Source: Nostoc sp. FACHB-280 (lineage in GTDB: Bacteria; Cyanobacteriota; Cyanobacteriia; Cyanobacteriales; Nostocaceae). Taken from it: 48,770 bases of DNA. Location of the stretch: NCBI RefSeq assembly GCF_014697615.1, contig NZ_JACJSD010000051.1:1-48770 (forward strand), read 5' to 3'. Below, one piece after another: positions 1-9,143 of this stretch. Position 1 is the first letter of the stretch; every line of letters starts with the position of its first letter. Position numbers and translations under genes: made by a program. The notes under the pieces were generated by a model. That model saw only the letters and a list, made by a program, of their open reading frames with translations. It did not search any database and was not told the DNA's origin.

Positions 1-2
1 TG

Positions 3-86
3 TTTATATTGCCAATTGCTTGTATAACTCTTTCCCTACTTGGGCTTTTGCCACCAATTACTGCTAATTCTATTGAATTATACTGA
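3..86 (+). CDS. Possible 3' end of a membrane protein gene (partial)
   Basis: One frame is open from the window edge to a TGA at 84-86 and encodes 27 mostly hydrophobic residues (rich in Leu, Ile and Pro), like the last transmembrane helix of a membrane protein. The other two plus-strand frames close at the TAA at 25-27 and at a TAA near position 65. The piece is too short to identify and may be chance. If real, it would be cargo of the CAST-like element. Confidence 0.25.
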   Translation, partial: FILPIACITLSLLGLLPPITANSIELY

Positions 87-348
87 TTTTATTCATGCTA
101 TTCTAGCATAGCTACTCTGGGAGAGCCATCACTATTTCAAGCAGAACGAGATAACATGGTTTATTGAGAGTCTGTAACAGTTGTATTTTCTTCAGAAAAA
201 GAATCAATATTATTCATAAAAATTAGGAATTACGCACTGTACAAAATAACTATCTTGTGTATCAAGGTAAATATGTTGTTTCAGGCTTTTATCAATCACC
301 TTTAATTGAGTGCGATCGCTAAAATCTTACTGCTAATTGCGAATTGGT
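87..348. other. AT-rich gap, no gene seen
   Basis: This is the region downstream of the TPR-CHAT gene. It holds one GCGATCGC-type site near 311 and a TGTACA at 238-243 that lacks neighbouring TnsB-type sites. I see no gene or clear terminator. Confidence 0.4.
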
Positions 349-3300
349 TTAATTAGCTTCCCCGATAAGGGTGAAAGCAGCCCAGTTAAGAGGATTAGAA
401 TATTGTTTTTTAGTTGTGAGCATAGCTTGACGTAACGCCAGAGCTTTATCAGGATTTTGCTGGAGGTGACGATAAAACTCACTCATTAAAAAAGCGGTAG
501 AATTATCATCTACAGCCCACAGTGAAACTACCACACTAGGCACACCAGCACTAATTAAAGAACGCGATAAACCAATCACACCATCACCTGTAACATTGCC
601 GCCGCCAGTATCGCAAGCACTGAGAACAACAAGTTGGGCGCTGAGTTTCAAGTCAAAGATTTCACCTGCTGTTAAGAAACCGTCATCTTTACCACTAGGA
701 GCAAGAGCGATCGCACCTGGGACACCAAAGCCTTTAAAATCATCAAGTAAGCCGTGAGTAGCAAAATGAATAATCTTGGCTTTCGCCATCTTAGGAAGAA
801 TTGCGGCTTTGGTAGCTTTGTTACCTGTAATTGCTTTGGTTTTCAATAAATCTGCAATTTGAATTGCTTCTTTTTCTGCACCAGGTAAAGATATTAGCTG
901 TTCATTGGTAATAGGAATTTTTGGCATAGTAGGATTCCCAACTATTAAAATGTCTTCTTTCCCGACTTTTGAATCATCAATTCCGACTCTTTGCTTGTGT
1001 GTTAAATCTAAAACTTGAATTGATGGTGCAGTTAGAATAGTGTGTTTTTCAATTAAGTATTTACCTTCCTCATCTTGCAATGCGACGAAGGGAACAGAAA
1101 ATAGGGAACTTTGCGGAATGAAGATGACTTTTTCGCTTTCTTTGGTGGGGAGAAGATCCGCGATGGGTTTGATGAGTAGTTCGTGTAGCCGTTGAAATCT
1201 TTGTTTGGTTGTGGGTACATTAGAATTTCCTGCAACGCTAATACCACCGCGACTTCTCACACCAATGGATTGACGACTGACGCTGATTAGTTGTGCTAAA
1301 GATGTGTTTTCTTTTTGCCACAAAGGTTTTAAATCAGCTTTGCGGAAGGTGACTTCACCTGTGGGCTTAATTACCCAAATATAAATTTCTGATTCTTTGG
1401 GTTCTAGTTTACCTTGTACTTTGAAATCATCATAAACGATTGAATATTGCACCAAGGTAGAATTTTGAATCTTGGCAATTTGTTTGATATCATTTATTGT
1501 TGGTGCTGCCAGTGATTTCATCTCGCTGTTATTCTGATTCAAGCGAGATGAAAGTAACTCCACAAACGCCCTAGCCCGACCGCGTTCTGATATTTCTAAA
1601 GCTGCATCGGTTTTCTTTTGAGCAATCAGAACTTTTTGTAGAGTGCGGTAAGTTGTACTTTGTGTCTCGAAAATTGAGACTTTATTAGTATCAGCTAATT
1701 TTTTATCTCGCAGAGATTCCCAAACTTTAATTCCCTCATACAGTGTTTTTTCTGCTGCGGCGAGATTACCAGATTTGTAGAGAGCAAGTCCTAAATTGTT
1801 TAAAGACAGTCCCTCACCTTGACGGTCTTTGATTTCACGGGCGATGGCTAAATGCTGCTGCTGGTACTCAATGGTTTTGGCGTAGTCTCCCAGTGAATAG
1901 TAAGCATTACCGAGATTTCCCAGTGCATTACCCTCACCTAGACGGTCTTTAATTTCACGGGCGATCACTAAACTCTGCTGCTGGTATTCAATGGCTTTAG
2001 GGTAGTCTCCCAGTGAATAGTAAGCACTACCAAGATTTCCCAGTGCTGCTCCCTCACCGTTACGGTCTTTGATTTCACGGGCGATGGATAATCTCTGCTG
2101 CTCGTACTCAATGACTTTGGCGTAATTTCCCAAAAACCCGTAAGCATTACCGAGATTTCCCAGTGTTGCTCCCTCACCCTGACGGTCTTTGATTTCACGG
2201 GCGATGGCTAAACTTGAGGAGTGGTAATCAATAGCTTTGGCGTAGTCTCCCAAAGACTGGTAAGCATTACCGAGATTTCCTAGTGCTGCTCCCTCACCTA
2301 GACGGTCTTTGATTTCACGGGTGATGGCTAATCTCTGCTGCTGGTACTCAATGGCTTTGGCGTAATCTCCTAGTGAATAGTAAGCAATACCCAGCTTTCC
2401 TAGTGCATTTCCCTCACCCTGACGATCTTTAATTTCACGGGCGATGGCTAAACTTGAGGAGTGGTAATCAATGGCTTTGGCGTAGTCTCCTAAAGACTGG
2501 TAAGCAAAACCGAGATTTCCCAGTGCTGCTCCCTCACCGTTACGGTCTTTGATTTCACGGGCGATGGCTAAACACTGCTGGTGGTACTCAATGGCTTTGG
2601 CGTAGTCTCCTAAAGACTGGTAAGCAATACCGAGATTTCCCAGTGCATATCCCTCACCTAGACGGTCTTTGATTTCACGGGCGATGGCTAATCTCTGCTG
2701 CTGGTACTCAATGGCTTTCGGGTAGTCTCCTAGATTAAGGTAAGCAAGACCCAGATTTCCCAGTGCTGCTCCCTCACCTAGACGGTTTTTGATTTCACGG
2801 GCGATAGCTAAACTCTGCTGGTGGTACTCAATGGCTTTCGGGTAGTCTCCTAGTGAATTGTAAGCAAGACCCAGATTTCCCAGTGATCGTCCCTCACCTT
2901 GACGGTCTTTGATTTCACGCGCGATGGCTAAACTCTGCTGGTGGTACTCAATGGCTTTCGGGTAGTCTCCTAGTGAATTGTAAGCATTACCGAGATTTCC
3001 CAGTGCGGCTCCCTCACCATTACGGTCTTTAATTTCACGGGCGATGGCTAAGAGCTGTTGGTGGTACTCAATGGCTTTGGCGTAGTCTCCTAATGAATAG
3101 TAAGCAATACCGAGATTTCCCAGTGCATATCCCTCGCCTTTACGGTCTTTAATTTCACGGTAAATAATTAGTGCTTGTTGCCAAGATTGTAATGCGGCTT
3201 CAAATTGACTGGTTTGAAACTGCTGAATACCTTGTTGTAATAGTCTATCTGCTTCGGCTTTTTTGTCTGCTGGTGTTTGTGCCAATAGCTGCGACGCTGG

Positions 3301-3387
3301 AAATACTGTTGGTAAATTGGCAATAGGTGGCGCAACAGTCAAGATGAGAGTGATGAATGTGGTTAAACTCAGTTGGCAATAACGCAT
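349..3387 (-). CDS. Exported TPR-CHAT protein (caspase-like protease fold)
   Basis: This 1012-aa protein starts with a hydrophobic signal sequence (about residues 5-37, ending in a Leu-Leu-Ala-Gln stretch), so it probably acts in the periplasm or outside the cell. Residues 48-83 form one degenerate TPR, 84-523 are eleven highly similar 40-residue TPRs, and a further TPR follows before a helical linker. The C-terminal third is a CHAT domain. It has both expected catalytic motifs: HFATHG with His878 and SACDTGGG with Cys925, so it looks like an active cysteine peptidase. CHAT is caspase-related, and TPR-CHAT proteins are common in filamentous cyanobacteria, where most have no assigned substrate. 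It lies inward from tniQ and so is probably transposon cargo. A defence role is possible but not shown. The start is ATG at 3387. Confidence 0.9.
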   Translation of the reverse strand: MRYCQLSLTTFITLILTVAPPIANLPTVFPASQLLAQTPADKKAEADRLLQQGIQQFQTSQFEAALQSWQQALIIYREIKDRKGEGYALGNLGIAYYSLGDYAKAIEYHQQLLAIAREIKDRNGEGAALGNLGNAYNSLGDYPKAIEYHQQSLAIAREIKDRQGEGRSLGNLGLAYNSLGDYPKAIEYHQQSLAIAREIKNRLGEGAALGNLGLAYLNLGDYPKAIEYQQQRLAIAREIKDRLGEGYALGNLGIAYQSLGDYAKAIEYHQQCLAIAREIKDRNGEGAALGNLGFAYQSLGDYAKAIDYHSSSLAIAREIKDRQGEGNALGKLGIAYYSLGDYAKAIEYQQQRLAITREIKDRLGEGAALGNLGNAYQSLGDYAKAIDYHSSSLAIAREIKDRQGEGATLGNLGNAYGFLGNYAKVIEYEQQRLSIAREIKDRNGEGAALGNLGSAYYSLGDYPKAIEYQQQSLVIAREIKDRLGEGNALGNLGNAYYSLGDYAKTIEYQQQHLAIAREIKDRQGEGLSLNNLGLALYKSGNLAAAEKTLYEGIKVWESLRDKKLADTNKVSIFETQSTTYRTLQKVLIAQKKTDAALEISERGRARAFVELLSSRLNQNNSEMKSLAAPTINDIKQIAKIQNSTLVQYSIVYDDFKVQGKLEPKESEIYIWVIKPTGEVTFRKADLKPLWQKENTSLAQLISVSRQSIGVRSRGGISVAGNSNVPTTKQRFQRLHELLIKPIADLLPTKESEKVIFIPQSSLFSVPFVALQDEEGKYLIEKHTILTAPSIQVLDLTHKQRVGIDDSKVGKEDILIVGNPTMPKIPITNEQLISLPGAEKEAIQIADLLKTKAITGNKATKAAILPKMAKAKIIHFATHGLLDDFKGFGVPGAIALAPSGKDDGFLTAGEIFDLKLSAQLVVLSACDTGGGNVTGDGVIGLSRSLISAGVPSVVVSLWAVDDNSTAFLMSEFYRHLQQNPDKALALRQAMLTTKKQYSNPLNWAAFTLIGEAN
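1819..3138 (-). repeat. Eleven 120-bp tandem repeats encoding TPRs
   Basis: Eleven contiguous units of exactly 120 bp encode 40-residue TPRs with the pattern GEG-x-ALGNLG-x-AY-x-SLGDY followed by KAIEY and LAIAREIKDR. The units stay nearly identical at DNA level, including at silent positions, which suggests recent unit duplication or gene conversion. Units 6 and 8 share a distinctive variant (DYHSSS in place of EYHQQ). Confidence 0.92.
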
Positions 3388-3552
3388 ATATTTTACAGTC
3401 AGCAGCAGATGAGCAATTCTACAAAATATATATCTCTCATTCTTTGAAGGATATGCAAATTAGATGCAACGAGTTCCGAATAAGCTGAAACCATGATGCT
3501 TGTCCTCATATCTTGCACCTAGCTGTGTAAACACGTAAAAAGCGAATAAAGG

Positions 3553-3984
3553 ATGCAAAATATTACAGTATTTGAATATTGTGGTGCTGCCTTTCATCAT
3601 CATTCTAGTAACTGTGCAGGCTGTATAGCCCAGCCATTAATATATTCTGGTGATTGTGGAGGCTGTATAGACAATGCACATATACACCTAATCCCATTTG
3701 ATAAAGATATACACAATCTGCTAAAAGAAAATTTTGACTTTGAAAAGATTGAGGATTTGGTAGAACTATTAAAATATCAAGCCGAAAATTTATCTTATCT
3801 ATATTATGAGTCAACTAATAGAGAAAGATTTGTTTTTAAGGTGGATGAAAAGCTTCCTTCTCAATTTTTACGTCAGCTTATATGTGAAGTTCTAGGGCAA
3901 CCCAACGTTTGGAATTGGGCAAAGCATCCTTTTCGTGACAAAATTCAATCTTTTAAAAAAGTTTATTATAATTCAGTATTTTGA
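3553..3984 (+). CDS. HIT-like (histidine triad) protein, N-terminally short
   Basis: The 143-aa product has Cys pairs at 21/24 and 35/38, then DNAHIHLIPF at about 40-49. This resembles the HIT nucleotide-hydrolase motif HxHxH, but with Asn41 in place of the first His; His43 and His45 remain. The N-terminal half of a normal HIT domain is absent. An in-frame TAA lies two codons before the ATG, and AAAGG sits directly upstream as a weak ribosome site. The gene may be a truncated remnant or a short divergent family member. It is divergent from the TPR-CHAT gene, sharing the gap 3388-3552, and lies on the cargo side of tniQ. Function is uncertain. Confidence 0.5.
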   Translation: MQNITVFEYCGAAFHHHSSNCAGCIAQPLIYSGDCGGCIDNAHIHLIPFDKDIHNLLKENFDFEKIEDLVELLKYQAENLSYLYYESTNRERFVFKVDEKLPSQFLRQLICEVLGQPNVWNWAKHPFRDKIQSFKKVYYNSVF

Positions 3985-4320
3985 TGGTTAATCCTTTTAC
4001 TGCCAATCGGCTAGTTGTGCTTTTCACATCTTAAGCAAAAGTTAATATATTAATTTTAATGAGATTAGAAAAAGTCATTCTAAGTAAGTCGACGTGAAAA
4101 AACATAACTAAGTTAAGAAAGGTAAACAAGGCTACTATCCTCTTCCCTTCTGCTTTCTGCCTCCTGCCTCCTGCCTTTCCACAACGATGATTTTTAACAC
4201 TGAGCTACTTACTTAGACAAAATTAAGAGTAAAAATAATTAGAATTATTGCATAAATTCTTTGGACAACCAAAACAATTTATCCAGAGACTTGGTTTATT
4301 TAATGCTTTTTTCTCTTAAT
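3985..4320. repeat. Gene-free gap with short tandem repeat (CTGCCTC type)
   Basis: This AT-rich gap between tniQ and the HIT-like gene contains a pyrimidine-rich tandem tract at about 4150-4178 built on CTGCCTC units. Such heptameric short tandem repeats are frequent between genes in Nostoc-type genomes. I see no ORF, no TnsB-type sites and no TGTACA, so it does not look like a second transposon end. Confidence 0.6.
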
Positions 4321-4827
4321 TTACAAACCCTTCTGTTGCTTTGCCATTTCCGCAAACAGCATCCTACATCTATGACAACACCCATCTTCCCATAGCGCAG
4401 GTATTTTGAAAGGTGCTTGACAATTGGGACACTTTGCTAAAAGCTTGAGTTGATGGCGATCGCACTTCCACACCGATTTATATTGCCACTCAATCCGGTG
4501 ACAAGGTGCTTCGGCATAACAAGCACCACACAGGCGAATTGGCTCATGCTGCATTCCCACTCCCAGAGGTGGCAGCATTTGAGCTAACCTGTCTGCATCT
4601 ACCTCTACTATAGATGCGATCGCTTCTAATTCTTTTTGGCTAGGACGAGGATTAAAGTGAAATCGCTCCCACCTTGCTACTACTGCACCAATTCCTGCCA
4701 AACGACCCAACCCACTGGGTGATAAATGGTTAGCACGTCTAAACCTACCAAGAAAGTGGCTCAGGCTTTCTCCTTCATAGGGTTCAATCAAGAATAGCCA
4801 AGGCTCAACATCTGGTGCCTCTTTCAT
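4321..4827 (-). CDS. tniQ: TniQ target-selection adaptor of a V-K CAST-like transposon
   Basis: The 168-aa protein opens with a TniQ helix-turn-helix domain containing the signature GESLSHFLGRFRRANHL (about 19-35). It continues with zinc-binding pairs: C100/C103, C122/H125, C133/C136 and C151/C154. The short length is typical of V-K systems; TnsD-type proteins are far longer. In V-K transposition TniQ caps the TnsC filament and links it to the Cas12k-guide complex at the target. Its ATG overlaps the tnsC stop by 4 bp (ATGA), indicating translational coupling. It is the last gene of the tnsB-tnsC-tniQ operon. Similarity to ShCAST TniQ is strong from memory. Confidence 0.93.
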   Translation of the reverse strand: MKEAPDVEPWLFLIEPYEGESLSHFLGRFRRANHLSPSGLGRLAGIGAVVARWERFHFNPRPSQKELEAIASIVEVDADRLAQMLPPLGVGMQHEPIRLCGACYAEAPCHRIEWQYKSVWKCDRHQLKLLAKCPNCQAPFKIPALWEDGCCHRCRMLFAEMAKQQKGL

Positions 4828-5654
4828 TTGTACTCCTTAGTAACTTCCTGTAAAACAGCCTTGTTAATCTTCTTTAATCCCCTTGATAAAGAACGAATTG
4901 CTGATTCTCTGAGAATCTCATCTAGCCGACCAATGTAACCCTCTGTTGCCGAAGTCAAAATCCGCAGCATATCCTTACTAATGAGATTAGAAGGCAATGG
5001 CAACTTTAAAACTTTATCTTCCCAAGTTTGTACAATGTCTTGGAAATCTTTTCCCGATAGCTTACCAAAGCGATGGCAAGCCCGAAAGCGGTTATAAACT
5101 TGTTCATCTCGCTTAATTACTGCCTCTAAACGGTCAGTTCCTACTAAAACAACAGCAATGCCCAACTTGTCATAAATATCACGCACCTCTGCAAAAGTCT
5201 CAGGTTTGAGGCGATCAGCTTCATCAATAATCAGCATTTCTACCCCGCAACCCTTGATTACTTCGATTGTTCTACCACGCAAATCTGATACGGTTCCCTT
5301 TGTCGCTCGAAAATTGAGGTGTTCAATTATCTCTTTGAATAATTCTTTAGAGCCGCATTTTTGCGGAGGTTGAATATAAACTACAGGCACAAATGGCGGT
5401 CGCCCTAATTCTTTGGGTTGTTTGTGCCTGTGCCTGTAAGCGTCACAAGCAACGGTCTTACCCGTTCTTGACTCTCCGACAACTCGACAAGATTGCCGTG
5501 CCTTGCGTTTTCCATCTAACCAATCATGAAGAGTTATTACTTGCTGTAATAGAACAATATTTTTATTCTTGAGACGAGCAATTTCTGCTTGTAACCACTC
5601 ATCATCCGGTTTTACCCCACCCAATTGCTGGGCGATCGCTTTTGCATCTGTCAT
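4824..5654 (-). CDS. tnsC: TnsC AAA+ ATPase transposition regulator
   Basis: This 276-aa AAA+ ATPase has Walker A GESRTGKT at 60-67 and Walker B LIIDEAD around 141-147. It matches V-K TnsC in length and in much of its sequence as I recall it. TnsC forms ATP-dependent helical filaments on DNA that connect the target complex (Cas12k and TniQ) to the TnsB transposase. V-K TnsC is shorter than E. coli Tn7 TnsC because it has no TnsA-interaction extension, in line with the missing tnsA. The ATG lies 3 bp after the tnsB stop, and the 3' end overlaps tniQ. Confidence 0.94.
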   Translation of the reverse strand: MTDAKAIAQQLGGVKPDDEWLQAEIARLKNKNIVLLQQVITLHDWLDGKRKARQSCRVVGESRTGKTVACDAYRHRHKQPKELGRPPFVPVVYIQPPQKCGSKELFKEIIEHLNFRATKGTVSDLRGRTIEVIKGCGVEMLIIDEADRLKPETFAEVRDIYDKLGIAVVLVGTDRLEAVIKRDEQVYNRFRACHRFGKLSGKDFQDIVQTWEDKVLKLPLPSNLISKDMLRILTSATEGYIGRLDEILRESAIRSLSRGLKKINKAVLQEVTKEYK

Positions 5655-5657
5655 TGT

Positions 5658-7412
5658 TTAAAATCCGTATTCTTCACGCAGTTGTTCATAATCCCAAACC
5701 TCTACTTCTGGGGATGAAGATTGAAGCCCAGTAGTAGATTCAACTTCTACTGCTTCCGTAACTGGAGATGGTAAAGATTCAGTTTTACTTTCATTCACCG
5801 CAGTAGAATGCAAAATCTCCTGCTCTAATTTTTGACGTTCCTTGCGACTTTTCTTTTTTGCCACTAGAGCATCACGCTCAAGGACTTCTTGCAATAAGGC
5901 TTGATTGCTAACAGTCTTACCCGCATTACGCAATCTACGACTAGCTGCTTCAGCTTCATCTAATGACAGTTGCTCTGTCTCCAAACCTTGAGCATGAGCG
6001 CGAGTCAGAAAAACTTCTTGACTTTTCTCTTGGCGATAAACCAGCACAGTTGTAATATCTCTGGGGTCATATCTTAAATTGACCGTTTCCCCCGCATATC
6101 CTGCTAGATATTCCCCTCGATACATCACATTTTGAAACTGTAAGCATCCACCTCTTTGTACTGTGCGCCGTGACTGTTTCATCAAGCAGATATCTAAATT
6201 ACGTTCTTCGATTGGCACTGGTACTGAAGGTAATCCCGCTTCCCAACGCCCAAAACGAGTTTGATCACCCATTCGCGCATCAATACTTTGGTTGTAGCGG
6301 TCAACGATGTACCGAACAAGTAGCTGTTCTAGTTCACGCAAGGTGAGTTTTGCGTCCTTCTCTGCATCTTCTGGGCGTTCCTGTACATTAGATCCGGTAT
6401 ATCCAGGTAGCGTGGAAAATAGTTGGTCATTCAATGTCTTAAAAGGACGCTCAACTACTCCACCTTCTGAAGGGCGATCGCGTAAATGACATACAAACCC
6501 CAATTGCGCCCCAATCTGGCTTAAGTGGTTTGAACGAAAATCTTTACCACCGTCAGTATAAAAATGTTCTGGCTTACCGTAAGTTCCCCATTCGCAGTGC
6601 AGTTTGTACTCTGCACCGTATTTTTTGGGCAAAATCGCATGGCGTAATGCTAAAGCTACTACCACTGAACTAGGCGCATCAAAACCTAAATTGATACCCA
6701 TAATGCAACGAGAATAGGTATCAATTACAGTTGTTAGCCAAGGACGACTTAGTAGTTCACCATGTTGATCTACTAGCAAAACATCTACACGGGTATGGTC
6801 ACATTGCCAAACATGATTGCTGTAGTCAACCGATAAATCTTGTCCTTCACGAGTTTTAACTGAAAGTGTTGTCCCCCTCCAACCAGGGCTGCGGATACTC
6901 TTAGCTTTTTCTTTTTGTTCCAATATGGGAGCTAATACCCGTAAAACAGTTCTGTAATTAGGAGGCTTGGAGTCGCCTAGTTCTCGCGCTTTAGCTTGAA
7001 CTCTCAGGGCAACTTGCTTGGGAGTCATGCGTTTACTACCCTTGTTACCTTCCTTATAAGTTTTGATGATGAAGTTTTCCCAAAACTCACCAATTCGATG
7101 TTTTCCTTTATCAGCCCTACCTGTCTGAGTGAATCCGACTAAGCCATCCTCTTCCCATTTTTTTACTAAACGCTGCACCGTTCGCACTGTCACACCTAGT
7201 TTTTCCGCAGCCTCCTTCAACTTCTGCCCGTAAGTTGTGCGATCGCATGGTTCCAGCAAACTTTGGATTACCTCTAACTTCAGTTGGGCTTCTTCTGAGA
7301 GTTCTGTAACAATCACATTAGTCTCAGGAGATGTGTTGCTTTCTTCTGATACGGCTTGGGCAGTATTTACCGACGTATGAACAGTGAAATCAGACATAAT
7401 GTTTCTGTTCAT
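5658..7412 (-). CDS. tnsB: TnsB DDE transposase
   Basis: This 584-aa member of the Mu/Tn7 transposase group begins with an N-terminal helix-turn-helix region (about 40-100), followed by the integrase-like core. The catalytic triad is visible: D205 in QCDHTRVDV, D287 in YTDGGKDF and E321 in VVERPF. These are the positions I recall for ShCAST TnsB. A beta-barrel domain and a charged C-terminal tail ending EEYGF follow; in ShCAST the tail contacts TnsC. TnsB binds the terminal repeats and joins the 3' ends to the target. Without TnsA the 5' ends stay uncut, so cointegrates are expected. The gene starts about 50 bp inside the nearest terminal repeat, so TnsB may regulate its own promoter (inference). 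A second in-frame ATG exists at residue 6. Confidence 0.95.
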   Translation of the reverse strand: MNRNIMSDFTVHTSVNTAQAVSEESNTSPETNVIVTELSEEAQLKLEVIQSLLEPCDRTTYGQKLKEAAEKLGVTVRTVQRLVKKWEEDGLVGFTQTGRADKGKHRIGEFWENFIIKTYKEGNKGSKRMTPKQVALRVQAKARELGDSKPPNYRTVLRVLAPILEQKEKAKSIRSPGWRGTTLSVKTREGQDLSVDYSNHVWQCDHTRVDVLLVDQHGELLSRPWLTTVIDTYSRCIMGINLGFDAPSSVVVALALRHAILPKKYGAEYKLHCEWGTYGKPEHFYTDGGKDFRSNHLSQIGAQLGFVCHLRDRPSEGGVVERPFKTLNDQLFSTLPGYTGSNVQERPEDAEKDAKLTLRELEQLLVRYIVDRYNQSIDARMGDQTRFGRWEAGLPSVPVPIEERNLDICLMKQSRRTVQRGGCLQFQNVMYRGEYLAGYAGETVNLRYDPRDITTVLVYRQEKSQEVFLTRAHAQGLETEQLSLDEAEAASRRLRNAGKTVSNQALLQEVLERDALVAKKKSRKERQKLEQEILHSTAVNESKTESLPSPVTEAVEVESTTGLQSSSPEVEVWDYEQLREEYGF

Positions 7413-7463
7413 GAATCAAAAATAAATTATAAATACATAATGTTATCCTAATACTTGGGAAAA

Positions 7464-7674
7464 CGACAGTCAATTTGTCATTATGAAAATATACAAAAAC
7501 TTTTTTCTAATTTCTGAAGCGACATTTAATTTGTCACAATCAGGACAAACGACAGCCAATTTGTCACTGTCGAGAAATAAGATAATACTTTTTGACTAGC
7601 GAAAACTCTTGCTGTACAAGCATTTACCAGATGACAATAATTTGTCACAACGACATTTAATTAGTCACTGTACA
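7464..7674. repeat. Transposon end with five TnsB-type binding sites (right end by ShCAST naming)
   Basis: Sites of the form CGACA-(4 nt)-AATTTGTCA occur at 7464-7480, 7520-7536 and 7550-7566. A one-base-shorter variant lies at 7631-7647 and a slightly altered copy at 7651-7667. The element ends with CACTGTACA, terminal base 7674, matching the TGTACA terminus of V-K elements. A second TGTACA lies inside at 7613-7618. From memory, the arrangement closely follows the tnsB-side end used in ShCAST donors. The same stretch must also contain the tnsB promoter. Confidence 0.88.
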
Positions 7675-7679
7675 GAATC
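7675..7679. other. Likely 5-bp target-site duplication (GAATC)
   Basis: The five bases directly outside the terminal TGTACA are the expected target-site duplication, since Tn7-like insertions duplicate 5 bp. The matching copy would lie at the far end, outside the window, so the duplication is not confirmed. Confidence 0.4.
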
Positions 7680-8262
7680 GTACATTGACACATTTGATGG
7701 TCAACTGTTAAAGGCACGACGAATAAAGGTCTGCTTGAAGCAGCCTAATCGTGACGGGGACAGAGAAATTTTTATTCTGACAAATCTGCCGTTTGAGGTG
7801 GTAAATGCAATTTTGATAGCCCAAATGTACCGCAAACGTTGGAAACTCGAAACCTTATTCCAAGTTCTGACAGAAAATCTCTGCTGCGAGATGAATACAC
7901 TAGGCTATCCAAAAGCAGCTTTGTTTACCTTCTGTATCGCTTTAGTTGCCTATAACGTACTGTCTACCGTTCAGGCAGCCCTCAGAAGTATTCATGGAAC
8001 CGAGAAGATAGAAGCCGAAGTTTCCAGCTACTATTTAGCCGATGAAATCAAGGGTACTTAAAGAGGAATGATGATTGCGATTCCCCCTGATGAGTGGTGT
8101 GTTTTTCAGAACATGACCTTCACAGAATTATCACAAACTCTCAAACATCTGGCAGGTCTTGTCAAACTGAGAACTTTTCGCCTTTATCCGCGAGGTCTAA
8201 AGAAAGCTCAACCAAAACGAACTTACCTCAAGAACAAGCAAGCCCCATATCTCAACTGCTAA
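7675..8262 (+). pseudogene. IS4-family transposase, 3' fragment interrupted by the CAST-like element and with an internal stop
   Basis: From 7675 the plus strand reads as the C-terminal half of an IS4-type DDE transposase, including the characteristic YRKRWKLETLFQVL stretch with the Y-x2-R-x3-E spacing. The open frame extends upstream to 7609 only because the transposon end happens to be open; about 22 codons there are transposon sequence, not transposase. A TAA at 8059-8061 breaks the frame, but the same frame resumes at once as RGMMIAIPP and runs to 8262. The stop therefore looks like a single substitution of a Tyr codon (TAT or TAC). The 5' half is missing from the window and should lie beyond the other end of the element. 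The gene is dead. Confidence 0.85.
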
Positions 8263-8410
8263 AATTATAACCCAGAAAAAGCTGCAAAATAACACACCTT
8301 GAAAGGGCTAGGTTTAACTCTCTGGGGATTCACTGTAGCACCGGAAGGGGGCATAACTCCGTTAGTAATTCCTTAAGACCAGTGTTTTGTTTTGGAAATG
8401 AGGCTAAAAA

Positions 8411-8444
8411 CAAAAAACACCGCGTCAGATGTATTCTGACACGG
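8411..8444 (-). terminator. Rho-independent terminator of the PEP-CTERM gene
   Basis: On the minus strand a 10-bp stem with one mismatch (CCGTGTCAGA pairing with TCTGACGCGG, loop of 5) is followed by TGTTTTTTG. It lies just after the stop of the PEP-CTERM gene at 8472. Confidence 0.75.
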
Positions 8445-8471
8445 GCGCTACAAAGTTGAATGAAAATTTAT

Positions 8472-9143
8472 TTATGCTTTAGCTTTTAGTTTTTGGAGTT
8501 GACGCTTAGATACTGAAACTGTACCTAAAGCCCCCAATGCTAATACACCTAGCCAAGCACTAGGTTCAGGAATTGATGTCGTCGTGCGTGACAGAGTAAT
8601 GTTATCCAGAATTAAACCAACATTATCTCCACCAACACCTTCAAAGGCTAAATTAGCCGTGGTCAGTGCGGCGACATTAATGGTGCGGGTAAAGGTGGTT
8701 AAAGCTTGGTTAGCTGGTAAGGTGAATGTTTCGTTGAACAAACTGCCCAAAGAGACAATTACGGAGTTAGTTTGGCCTCGTCTTCTTGCACCACCAAGAT
8801 CGAAGCTGATGTCAACTACATCTCCTGGATTAAATGTAAATGCTGTTTTTGATGTAATTATCCCAGCATTACGGGTTGAGCCATCTGTATCAATATACAG
8901 TCCGTTACCAGGGAATAAGTCAAAAAAACGATTGCCAATTAAGTCAACGGTGCCACCAGAAACGTTCCAGTTAGTAAAAGCATTGTAGTTTAAACGTCCC
9001 ACACCACCATTTTCACTATCAAAGTTGTCAGATAGTAGGGTGGCGGCACTAGCTGTATGAGATGTTGCCATGCCTATGGCTGTGATGGTGGTTAATGTGA
9101 GTCCTAATTTACTGAATGTGGAAAAAAAATTTGATTTAGCCAT
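8472..9143 (-). CDS. PEP-CTERM sorting-domain protein
   Basis: This is a 223-aa exported protein. It has an N-terminal signal peptide (about 1-33, ending ASA), a beta-rich middle domain with many Gly, Asn and Thr residues, and a C-terminal PEP-CTERM tail. The tail consists of IPEPSAW, a hydrophobic helix and a basic end (KRQLQKLKAKA). Such proteins are processed by exosortase and attached to or released at the cell surface, often as part of the extracellular matrix. The middle domain resembles carbohydrate-binding or jelly-roll folds, but I cannot name it. The gene stands alone with its own terminator. Confidence 0.85.
   Translation of the reverse strand: MAKSNFFSTFSKLGLTLTTITAIGMATSHTASAATLLSDNFDSENGGVGRLNYNAFTNWNVSGGTVDLIGNRFFDLFPGNGLYIDTDGSTRNAGIITSKTAFTFNPGDVVDISFDLGGARRRGQTNSVIVSLGSLFNETFTLPANQALTTFTRTINVAALTTANLAFEGVGGDNVGLILDNITLSRTTTSIPEPSAWLGVLALGALGTVSVSKRQLQKLKAKA

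What the first reader, a model, noticed from the sequence alone, without database searches (positions are those of the whole stretch)
4321..7674. ShCAST-like V-K transposition module (TnsB-TnsC-TniQ) with its end intact
The lengths 584/276/168 aa, catalytic residues D205, D287 and E321, the absence of tnsA, the coupled gene order and the repeat-bearing TGTACA end together point to a type V-K CRISPR-associated transposon. cas12k, tracrRNA and CRISPR would be left of this window. The catalytic and ATPase residues seen are intact, so the module looks functional. A new member of this small family is worth having for its guide spacers and cargo.
Basis: partly seen in the sequence, partly recalled or inferred. 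Interest (0 to 1): 0.85.

Follow-up and report, generated by a model that had tools for sequence, protein, structure and literature searches.

The report
Half of a guide-RNA-directed jumping gene
The window holds one half of a jumping gene of a known kind that uses a CRISPR guide to choose its landing site; its other half lies on another piece of the same genome, and that half has lost most of a helper RNA that such elements need.

Summary
Window 4321-7412 encodes TniQ, TnsC and TnsB of the ShCAST type (151/166, 225/276, 499/577 residues identical to the solved ShCAST proteins), and a transposon end closes at base 7674. The predicted rest lies in the same genome on contig C25: left end, homing spacer, short CRISPR array, cas12k and cvkR. 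C25 and the window are tied twice: by an 8-bp duplication around an insertion sequence at the window's left edge and by a 5-bp duplication at the two CAST ends. The element is a V-K CAST of 35.4 kb, 60 bp from a protospacer with GTT PAM in tRNA-Leu. The only full tracrRNA found in this genome lies in a second CAST on C22. So it is a clear family member but probably not autonomous; use of the sister's tracrRNA is inferred, not shown. New member of a known kind.

The parts
1..127 (.). one end of an ISL3-like insertion sequence that sits inside the CAST and broke the assembly
   Evidence: the same 127 bases end 6 other contigs, which diverge right after this point; transposase frame read from a related copy on C40. 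The name ISL3 is recalled (8-bp duplication, ends); no tool gave it
128..135 (.). ATCACTAT, 8-bp target duplication of that IS; its partner is C25:139817-139824
349..3387 (-). cargo gene: TPR-CHAT protein, 1012 aa
3553..3984 (+). cargo ORF, 143 aa, no family found
4321..4827 (-). tniQ, 168 aa
   Evidence: 151/166 identical to ShTniQ
4824..5654 (-). tnsC, 276 aa
   Evidence: 225/276 identical to ShTnsC
5658..7412 (-). tnsB, 584 aa, D205/D287/E321 present
   Evidence: 499/577 identical to ShTnsB
7432..7446 (+). AATACATAATGTTAT, exact match to the published CvkR operator motif, upstream of tnsB; the only one in the window
   Evidence: expected 0.12; 10 of 100 shuffles have at least one; motif from PMC9938897 (passage)
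7430..7674 (-). right end of the CAST with TnsB-site-like repeats
7675..7679 (+). GAATC, 5-bp target duplication; the same five bases precede the left end at C25:112003
7680..8061 (+). outside the CAST: C-terminal fragment of an IS4-family transposase gene

Best explanation
The window carries the right-end half (right end, tnsB, tnsC, tniQ, two cargo genes) of a 35.4-kb type V-K CRISPR-associated transposon of the ShCAST lineage. The left-end half (left end, homing spacer, two-spacer array, remnant tracrRNA, cas12k, cvkR, cargo with a class V lanthipeptide-like cluster) is contig C25:112003-139951; an ISL3-like insertion separates the two in the assembly. By analogy with ShCAST (inferred): Cas12k with a crRNA matching the 3' end of tRNA-Leu binds next to a GTT PAM, TnsC polymerises with TniQ, and TnsB inserts the element about 60 bp from the PAM with a 5-bp duplication; CvkR represses cas12k and tnsB. 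Shown here: anatomy, PAM-protospacer-end spacing, duplications, CvkR motif matches, and that the tracrRNA is cut to its first 75 nt and runs straight into a CRISPR repeat. Inferred: in its present state it cannot make its own guide complex; guided movement would need the tracrRNA of the second CAST (contig C22) in trans, or it is stranded.
For: Cas12k family matches in this genome on C22 and C25 only. The IS duplication pairs C25 with the window; 6 exact 8-bp pairs were found among 8 left and 7 right IS ends, with no second partner for either (two left ends and one right end stayed unpaired). GAATC on both CAST sides. No other exact TGTACAGTGAC in C25:100000-139951 or window 1-9000; some matches with 1-2 mismatches exist. 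Homing spacer and protospacer identical over 17 nt (C25:112165-112181 minus, 111943-111959 plus), PAM GTT, 60 bp to the left end. Best full-length PDB matches are ShTnsB, ShTnsC, ShTniQ, ShCas12k. CvkR motif once in the window, before tnsB, and once in C25:100000-119999, 20 bp from the cas12k start and inside the 5' part of the longest cvkR frame. tracrRNA: 88 of 91 loci complete, this one stops at nt 75-77; the full RNA was found once in the genome, on C22. A sister element in a congener has the same repeat and homing spacer with a full tracrRNA and 12 repeat ends.
Against: C25 and the window are separate contigs; the join rests on two duplications, not on reads. The tracrRNA deletion comes from one assembly and was not checked on reads. 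The flank beyond the right end (IS4 fragment) is not what follows the tRNA in two congener sites without a CAST end (L144, L145, by eye), and no clean empty site was found. The duplex energy offered for trans use is not better than many shuffled repeats (148 of 500). No expression or transposition data.
Confidence: 0.93

Rival explanations
1. Same element, but a dead relic for guided transposition: the tracrRNA deletion ended its guided mobility and the proteins are only not yet decayed.
For: tracrRNA body and anti-repeat missing; array down to two spacers; an IS has already inserted in the cargo; the congener's sister element is itself broken in tnsB (513-aa frame).
Against: All four core proteins are full length and TnsB keeps its catalytic residues; both CvkR motif matches are exact; a full tracrRNA exists on C22.
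Confidence: 0.5
2. The tracrRNA deletion is an assembly artefact caused by the two similar CASTs in one genome.
For: C22 and C25 share 91.7% identity over cas12k and its neighbourhood and 98.7% over the first 75 nt of the tracrRNA.
Against: The repeat at the junction is of the C25 type, which C22 does not have, so a collapse of the two copies does not explain it; a similar fusion (tracrRNA start joined to a repeat end, seen by eye) is in another genome assembled in 2 contigs.
Confidence: 0.07
3. A Tn5053/Tn7-like element without Cas12k, unrelated to CRISPR.
For: The window itself has no cas12k match and no tracrRNA match; arrays were not searched for across the whole window.
Against: cas12k, array and homing spacer are on the joined contig; the proteins match ShCAST over full length, with the next TnsB family at 110 bits against 1140.
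Confidence: 0.01

Closest known systems
ShCAST (Scytonema hofmannii type V-K CAST)
   Same: TnsB, TnsC, TniQ and Cas12k align over full length and are the best solved relatives; gene order, GTN PAM and TGTACA ends as in V-K CASTs (gene order and PAM: passages of PMC9938897; other ShCAST details recalled)
   Different: tracrRNA cut after nt 75; identities 499/577 (TnsB), 225/276 (TnsC), 151/166 (TniQ)
Element at tRNA-Leu in congener G160 contig 13 (probably Nostoc sp. FACHB-110 contig17, inferred from equal contig length 132134, L037)
   Same: same first CRISPR repeat and homing spacer, left end 95.5% identical over 200 bp, collinear tRNA-side flank
   Different: full tracrRNA, 12 repeat ends, different cargo, tnsB cut short, no blastn match to the window's tnsC and tniQ in the 60 kb read
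Second CAST in the same genome, contig C22:109009-132807
   Same: same architecture; TnsB 534/583, TnsC 218/276, TniQ 155/168 identical
   Different: full tracrRNA, eight array spacers, other tRNA target, restriction-modification-like cargo (by eye from translations), no 5-bp duplication
AnCAST of Anabaena sp. PCC 7120 with CvkR (PMC9938897, passages read)
   Same: cvkR next to cas12k in reverse orientation; CvkR motif before tnsB and cas12k
   Different: AnCAST (24,963 nt) has a tracrRNA probed on Northern blots

Membership tests
Type V-K CAST | cas12k in the same element | tested here: met
   C25:112543-114429, 976 bits to NF038191 (cut-off 150), no internal stop; tied to the window
Type V-K CAST | tnsB-tnsC-tniQ in this order, read away from the right end | tested here: met
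Type V-K CAST | no tnsA | tested here: met
   no TnsA-like Pfam domain in the five main window ORFs of the element or in the 15 C25 ORFs scanned; one 109-aa antisense ORF and shorter ORFs were not scanned
Type V-K CAST | two TGTACA ends with a 5-bp duplication | tested here: met
   GAATC at C25:111998-112002 and window 7675-7679
Type V-K CAST | delocalised homing spacer matching a tRNA gene beside the left end, GTN PAM | tested here: met
   17 of 17 nt, PAM GTT, 60 bp
Type V-K CAST | CRISPR array | tested here: met
   two spacers with one cut, one full and one terminal altered repeat
Type V-K CAST | tracrRNA in cis (part of the working system) | tested here: not met
   only nt 1-75 of the 236-nt region remain; read as a secondary loss, since the sister element has it. 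Origin and architecture still place the element in the family; its autonomy is what fails
Type V-K CAST | TnsB groups with V-K TnsB | tested here: met
   tree of 43 rows (40 of 61 loci kept, 21 dropped as short or with stops): window in a 12-row clade, 100/99 support, with ShTnsB and cas12k-bearing loci; only 12 of 61 loci show cas12k within their limited flanks; no Tn7 or Tn5053 outgroup
Type V-K CAST | RNA-guided transposition | not testable with these tools
   needs a bench assay
Class V lanthipeptide cluster (cargo) | LxmK-like kinase, HopA1-type lyase, precursor peptides | tested here: inconclusive
   kinase matches NF038156 at 77.8 bits, below its cut-off of 315; HopA1 203.6 bits, over its cut-off; three tandem Thr-rich precursor-like ORFs chosen by eye, without a family match

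The most novel reading that the evidence does not exclude
The element is a satellite CAST: it keeps its own transposase, Cas12k, ends and homing spacer but has shed its tracrRNA and moves only with the tracrRNA of the co-resident CAST, while the tracrRNA promoter region now drives its short array directly. A similar fusion of tracrRNA start to repeat end in another genome (G048) would make this a recurrent way of decay or of turning non-autonomous; in G048, though, no tracrRNA was found elsewhere, which fits decay better there.
Probability: 0.2. Interest if true: 0.6.

Novelty: new member of a known kind. Interest (0 to 1): 0.38.

Why it matters
It confirms a blind reading of half an element by finding its other half, adds an ShCAST relative with both ends and its target defined, and shows a natural pair of V-K CASTs in one genome of which only one has a full tracrRNA. 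That pair makes it directly testable whether one CAST's tracrRNA can serve another's guides. It also shows a lanthipeptide-like cluster inside a CAST; the library searched held no paper with both 'Cas12k' and 'lanthipeptide'.

Tried and rejected
Tn5053/Tn7-like element without Cas12k: rejected once cas12k was tied to the window. Rfam on the window: no match at gathering scores. Array targets: only 2 of the 10 array spacers (both of CAST-2) were searched. In plasmids no record matched over 80% of a spacer; short weak matches only. The first 20 nt of each in viral contigs gave 2 and 0 contigs; the two share 24 of 35 nt and have no GTN PAM, so they were taken as chance. Phage records were not searched. 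Duplex energy of the C22 tracrRNA end with the C25 repeat equals that of the sister's own pair (-14.0), but 148 of 500 shuffled repeats reach it, so it carries little weight. Empty site: a query of the two flanks joined found no uninterrupted copy among 11 genomes of the genus. Of ten congeners, nine tRNA-Leu sites were read by eye: four (L144, L145, L147, L148) show no CAST end in the ~130 bases printed, five (L142, L146, L149, L150, L151) show CAST-end-like sequence, partly degenerate; the tenth (G165) was not read. A tracrRNA search in G048 and G050 found nothing, without a positive control in those genomes.

Full report
Observation. On the - strand the window encodes TniQ (4321-4827, 168 aa), TnsC (4824-5654, 276 aa) and TnsB (5658-7412, 584 aa) in coupled order. 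Pfam gives TniQ, TniB/AAA_22 and Mu-transpos_C with helix-turn-helix domains. D205, D287 and E321 are present. The solved ShCAST proteins are the best matches over full length: TnsB 1140 bits (next family 110), TnsC 485 bits, TniQ 362 bits; identities 499/577, 225/276 and 151/166. The end closes at 7674 with TGTACA. In the nomenclature of PMC9938897 (passages only) the tnsB side is the right end.

The other half. The window is the whole of contig C61 of a 7.64-Mb, 113-contig genome. Cas12k matches occur twice: C22:110338-112224 and C25:112543-114429. The window's first 127 bases are an IS end that also ends six other contigs; the other IS end closes eight contigs. Six left-right pairs share an exact 8-bp flank; C25-window (ATCACTAT) is one of them, with no competing 8-bp match, while two left ends and one right end stay unpaired. 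Independently, the CAST end on C25 (first base 112003) is preceded by GAATC and the window's end is followed by GAATC. The element is 35,361 bp without the IS copy. No further exact TGTACAGTGAC was found in C25:100000-139951 or window 1-9000, though matches with one or two mismatches were.

Target. tRNA-Leu (TAG anticodon) ends about 40 bp before the left end. Its 3' part carries GTT plus CAAGTCCTTTCATCCGC, identical to the delocalised spacer at C25:112165-112181 (minus strand) next to a truncated repeat; 60 bp separate protospacer start and left end. PMC9938897 gives 46 to 82 nt from PAM to left end (one exception) and a usual 17-nt spacer. Of nine congener sites read by eye, five have CAST-end-like sequence beside the same tRNA and four show none in the bases printed; a tenth was not read.

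Regulation. The MerR-domain gene beside cas12k (L012:14416-14970) has the CvkR position. The published CvkR motif AnnACATnATGTnnT (passage) occurs once in the window, at 7432-7446 before tnsB (expected 0.12; 10 of 100 shuffles have one), once in C25:100000-119999, 20 bp from the cas12k start and inside the 5' part of the longest cvkR frame, whose real start may lie further in (expected 0.07; 14 of 200 shuffles), and once in the C22 stretch before its tnsB (10 of 200 shuffles).

tracrRNA. Compared with the 236-nt C22 tracrRNA region, the C25 copy is 98.7% identical for nt 1-75 and then runs into the last 22 nt of a CRISPR repeat. In the first set of 31 cas12k loci, 30 match through the anti-repeat end, some in two pieces; only C25 stops. 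Of 60 further loci, which I picked nearly by score from the capped list, 58 are complete and two (L189, L232) have none; L232's cas12k is partial with a stop. So 88 of 91 are complete; some of these loci are near-identical to each other, so the 91 are not independent. L189 (G048) shows a similar structure by eye: 13 nt of the tracrRNA start fused to a repeat end, then a short array. In this genome the full tracrRNA was found only on C22. The congener's sister element, with the same repeat and homing spacer, has a tracrRNA 97% identical to C22's; this makes trans service plausible but does not show it. The duplex energies are equal (-14.0) but unremarkable against shuffles (148 of 500).

Second CAST and mosaicism. 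C22:109009-132807 is a CAST with full tracrRNA, eight array spacers, full-length core ORFs and restriction-modification-like cargo judged by eye from translations, but its flanks show no 5-bp duplication. The congener element has a left end 95.5% identical to C25's over 200 bp (C22's is 76%), whereas a 6-kb stretch holding its tracrRNA and cas12k is 96% identical to C22's. Left end plus array and tracrRNA plus cas12k thus have different nearest relatives, which points to exchange near the point where C25 has its deletion (inference).

Cargo. Between cas12k and tniQ lie CHAT and caspase-domain genes, a C39-peptidase ABC exporter, an HlyD protein, a PpiC-type isomerase, a HopA1-domain protein, a kinase weakly like class V LxmK, and three tandem Thr-rich peptides with an IQGG motif, plus the window's TPR-CHAT gene. 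The kinase is common: 215 of 217 family genomes have a match at E 1e-10, so a widespread kind of gene set seems to have been captured. Library searches: Cas12k with 'biosynthetic gene cluster', 'transposon' and 'cyanobacteria' gave four papers, which from titles and abstract starts alone look like reviews or tool papers; 'Cas12k' with 'lanthipeptide' gave none. PMC8649781 (passages) surveys Tn7 cargo and notes a bacterium with two V-K CASTs, so pairs are known. PMC9938897 reports degenerated cas12k genes and 119 tracrRNA loci around 210 regulator genes (passage), so incomplete V-K CASTs are known as well.

Verdict. The reading as a V-K CAST is right. The unusual point is the cut tracrRNA beside a co-resident CAST that has a full one.

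Noticed in passing
G048:C1:4703500-4712000 (L233), about 3890-4120: Another cas12k with an open full-length frame whose tracrRNA start (13 nt, by eye) is fused directly to a repeat end and short array; no tracrRNA found elsewhere in that genome.
   Followed up: partly
C22:109009-132807: The second CAST in this genome has no 5-bp target duplication (CCTAA against TAAGC).
   Followed up: no
L013:14174-19150 (C25): Lanthipeptide-like cluster inside the CAST, with three tandem similar precursor-like ORFs and a separate IQGG peptide.
   Followed up: partly
window 4080-4212: A dispersed ~130-bp intergenic repeat just beyond tniQ; 26 full or partial matches elsewhere in the genome are listed.
   Followed up: no
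window 7680-8061: A C-terminal IS4 transposase fragment abuts the right end where congeners (L144, L145) continue the tRNA-Leu terminator, so the site was altered before or with the insertion.
   Followed up: partly
G160 contig 13, 15690-28338: Sister element mixes a C25-like left end and array with C22-like tracrRNA and cas12k, and its tnsB is cut short.
   Followed up: partly
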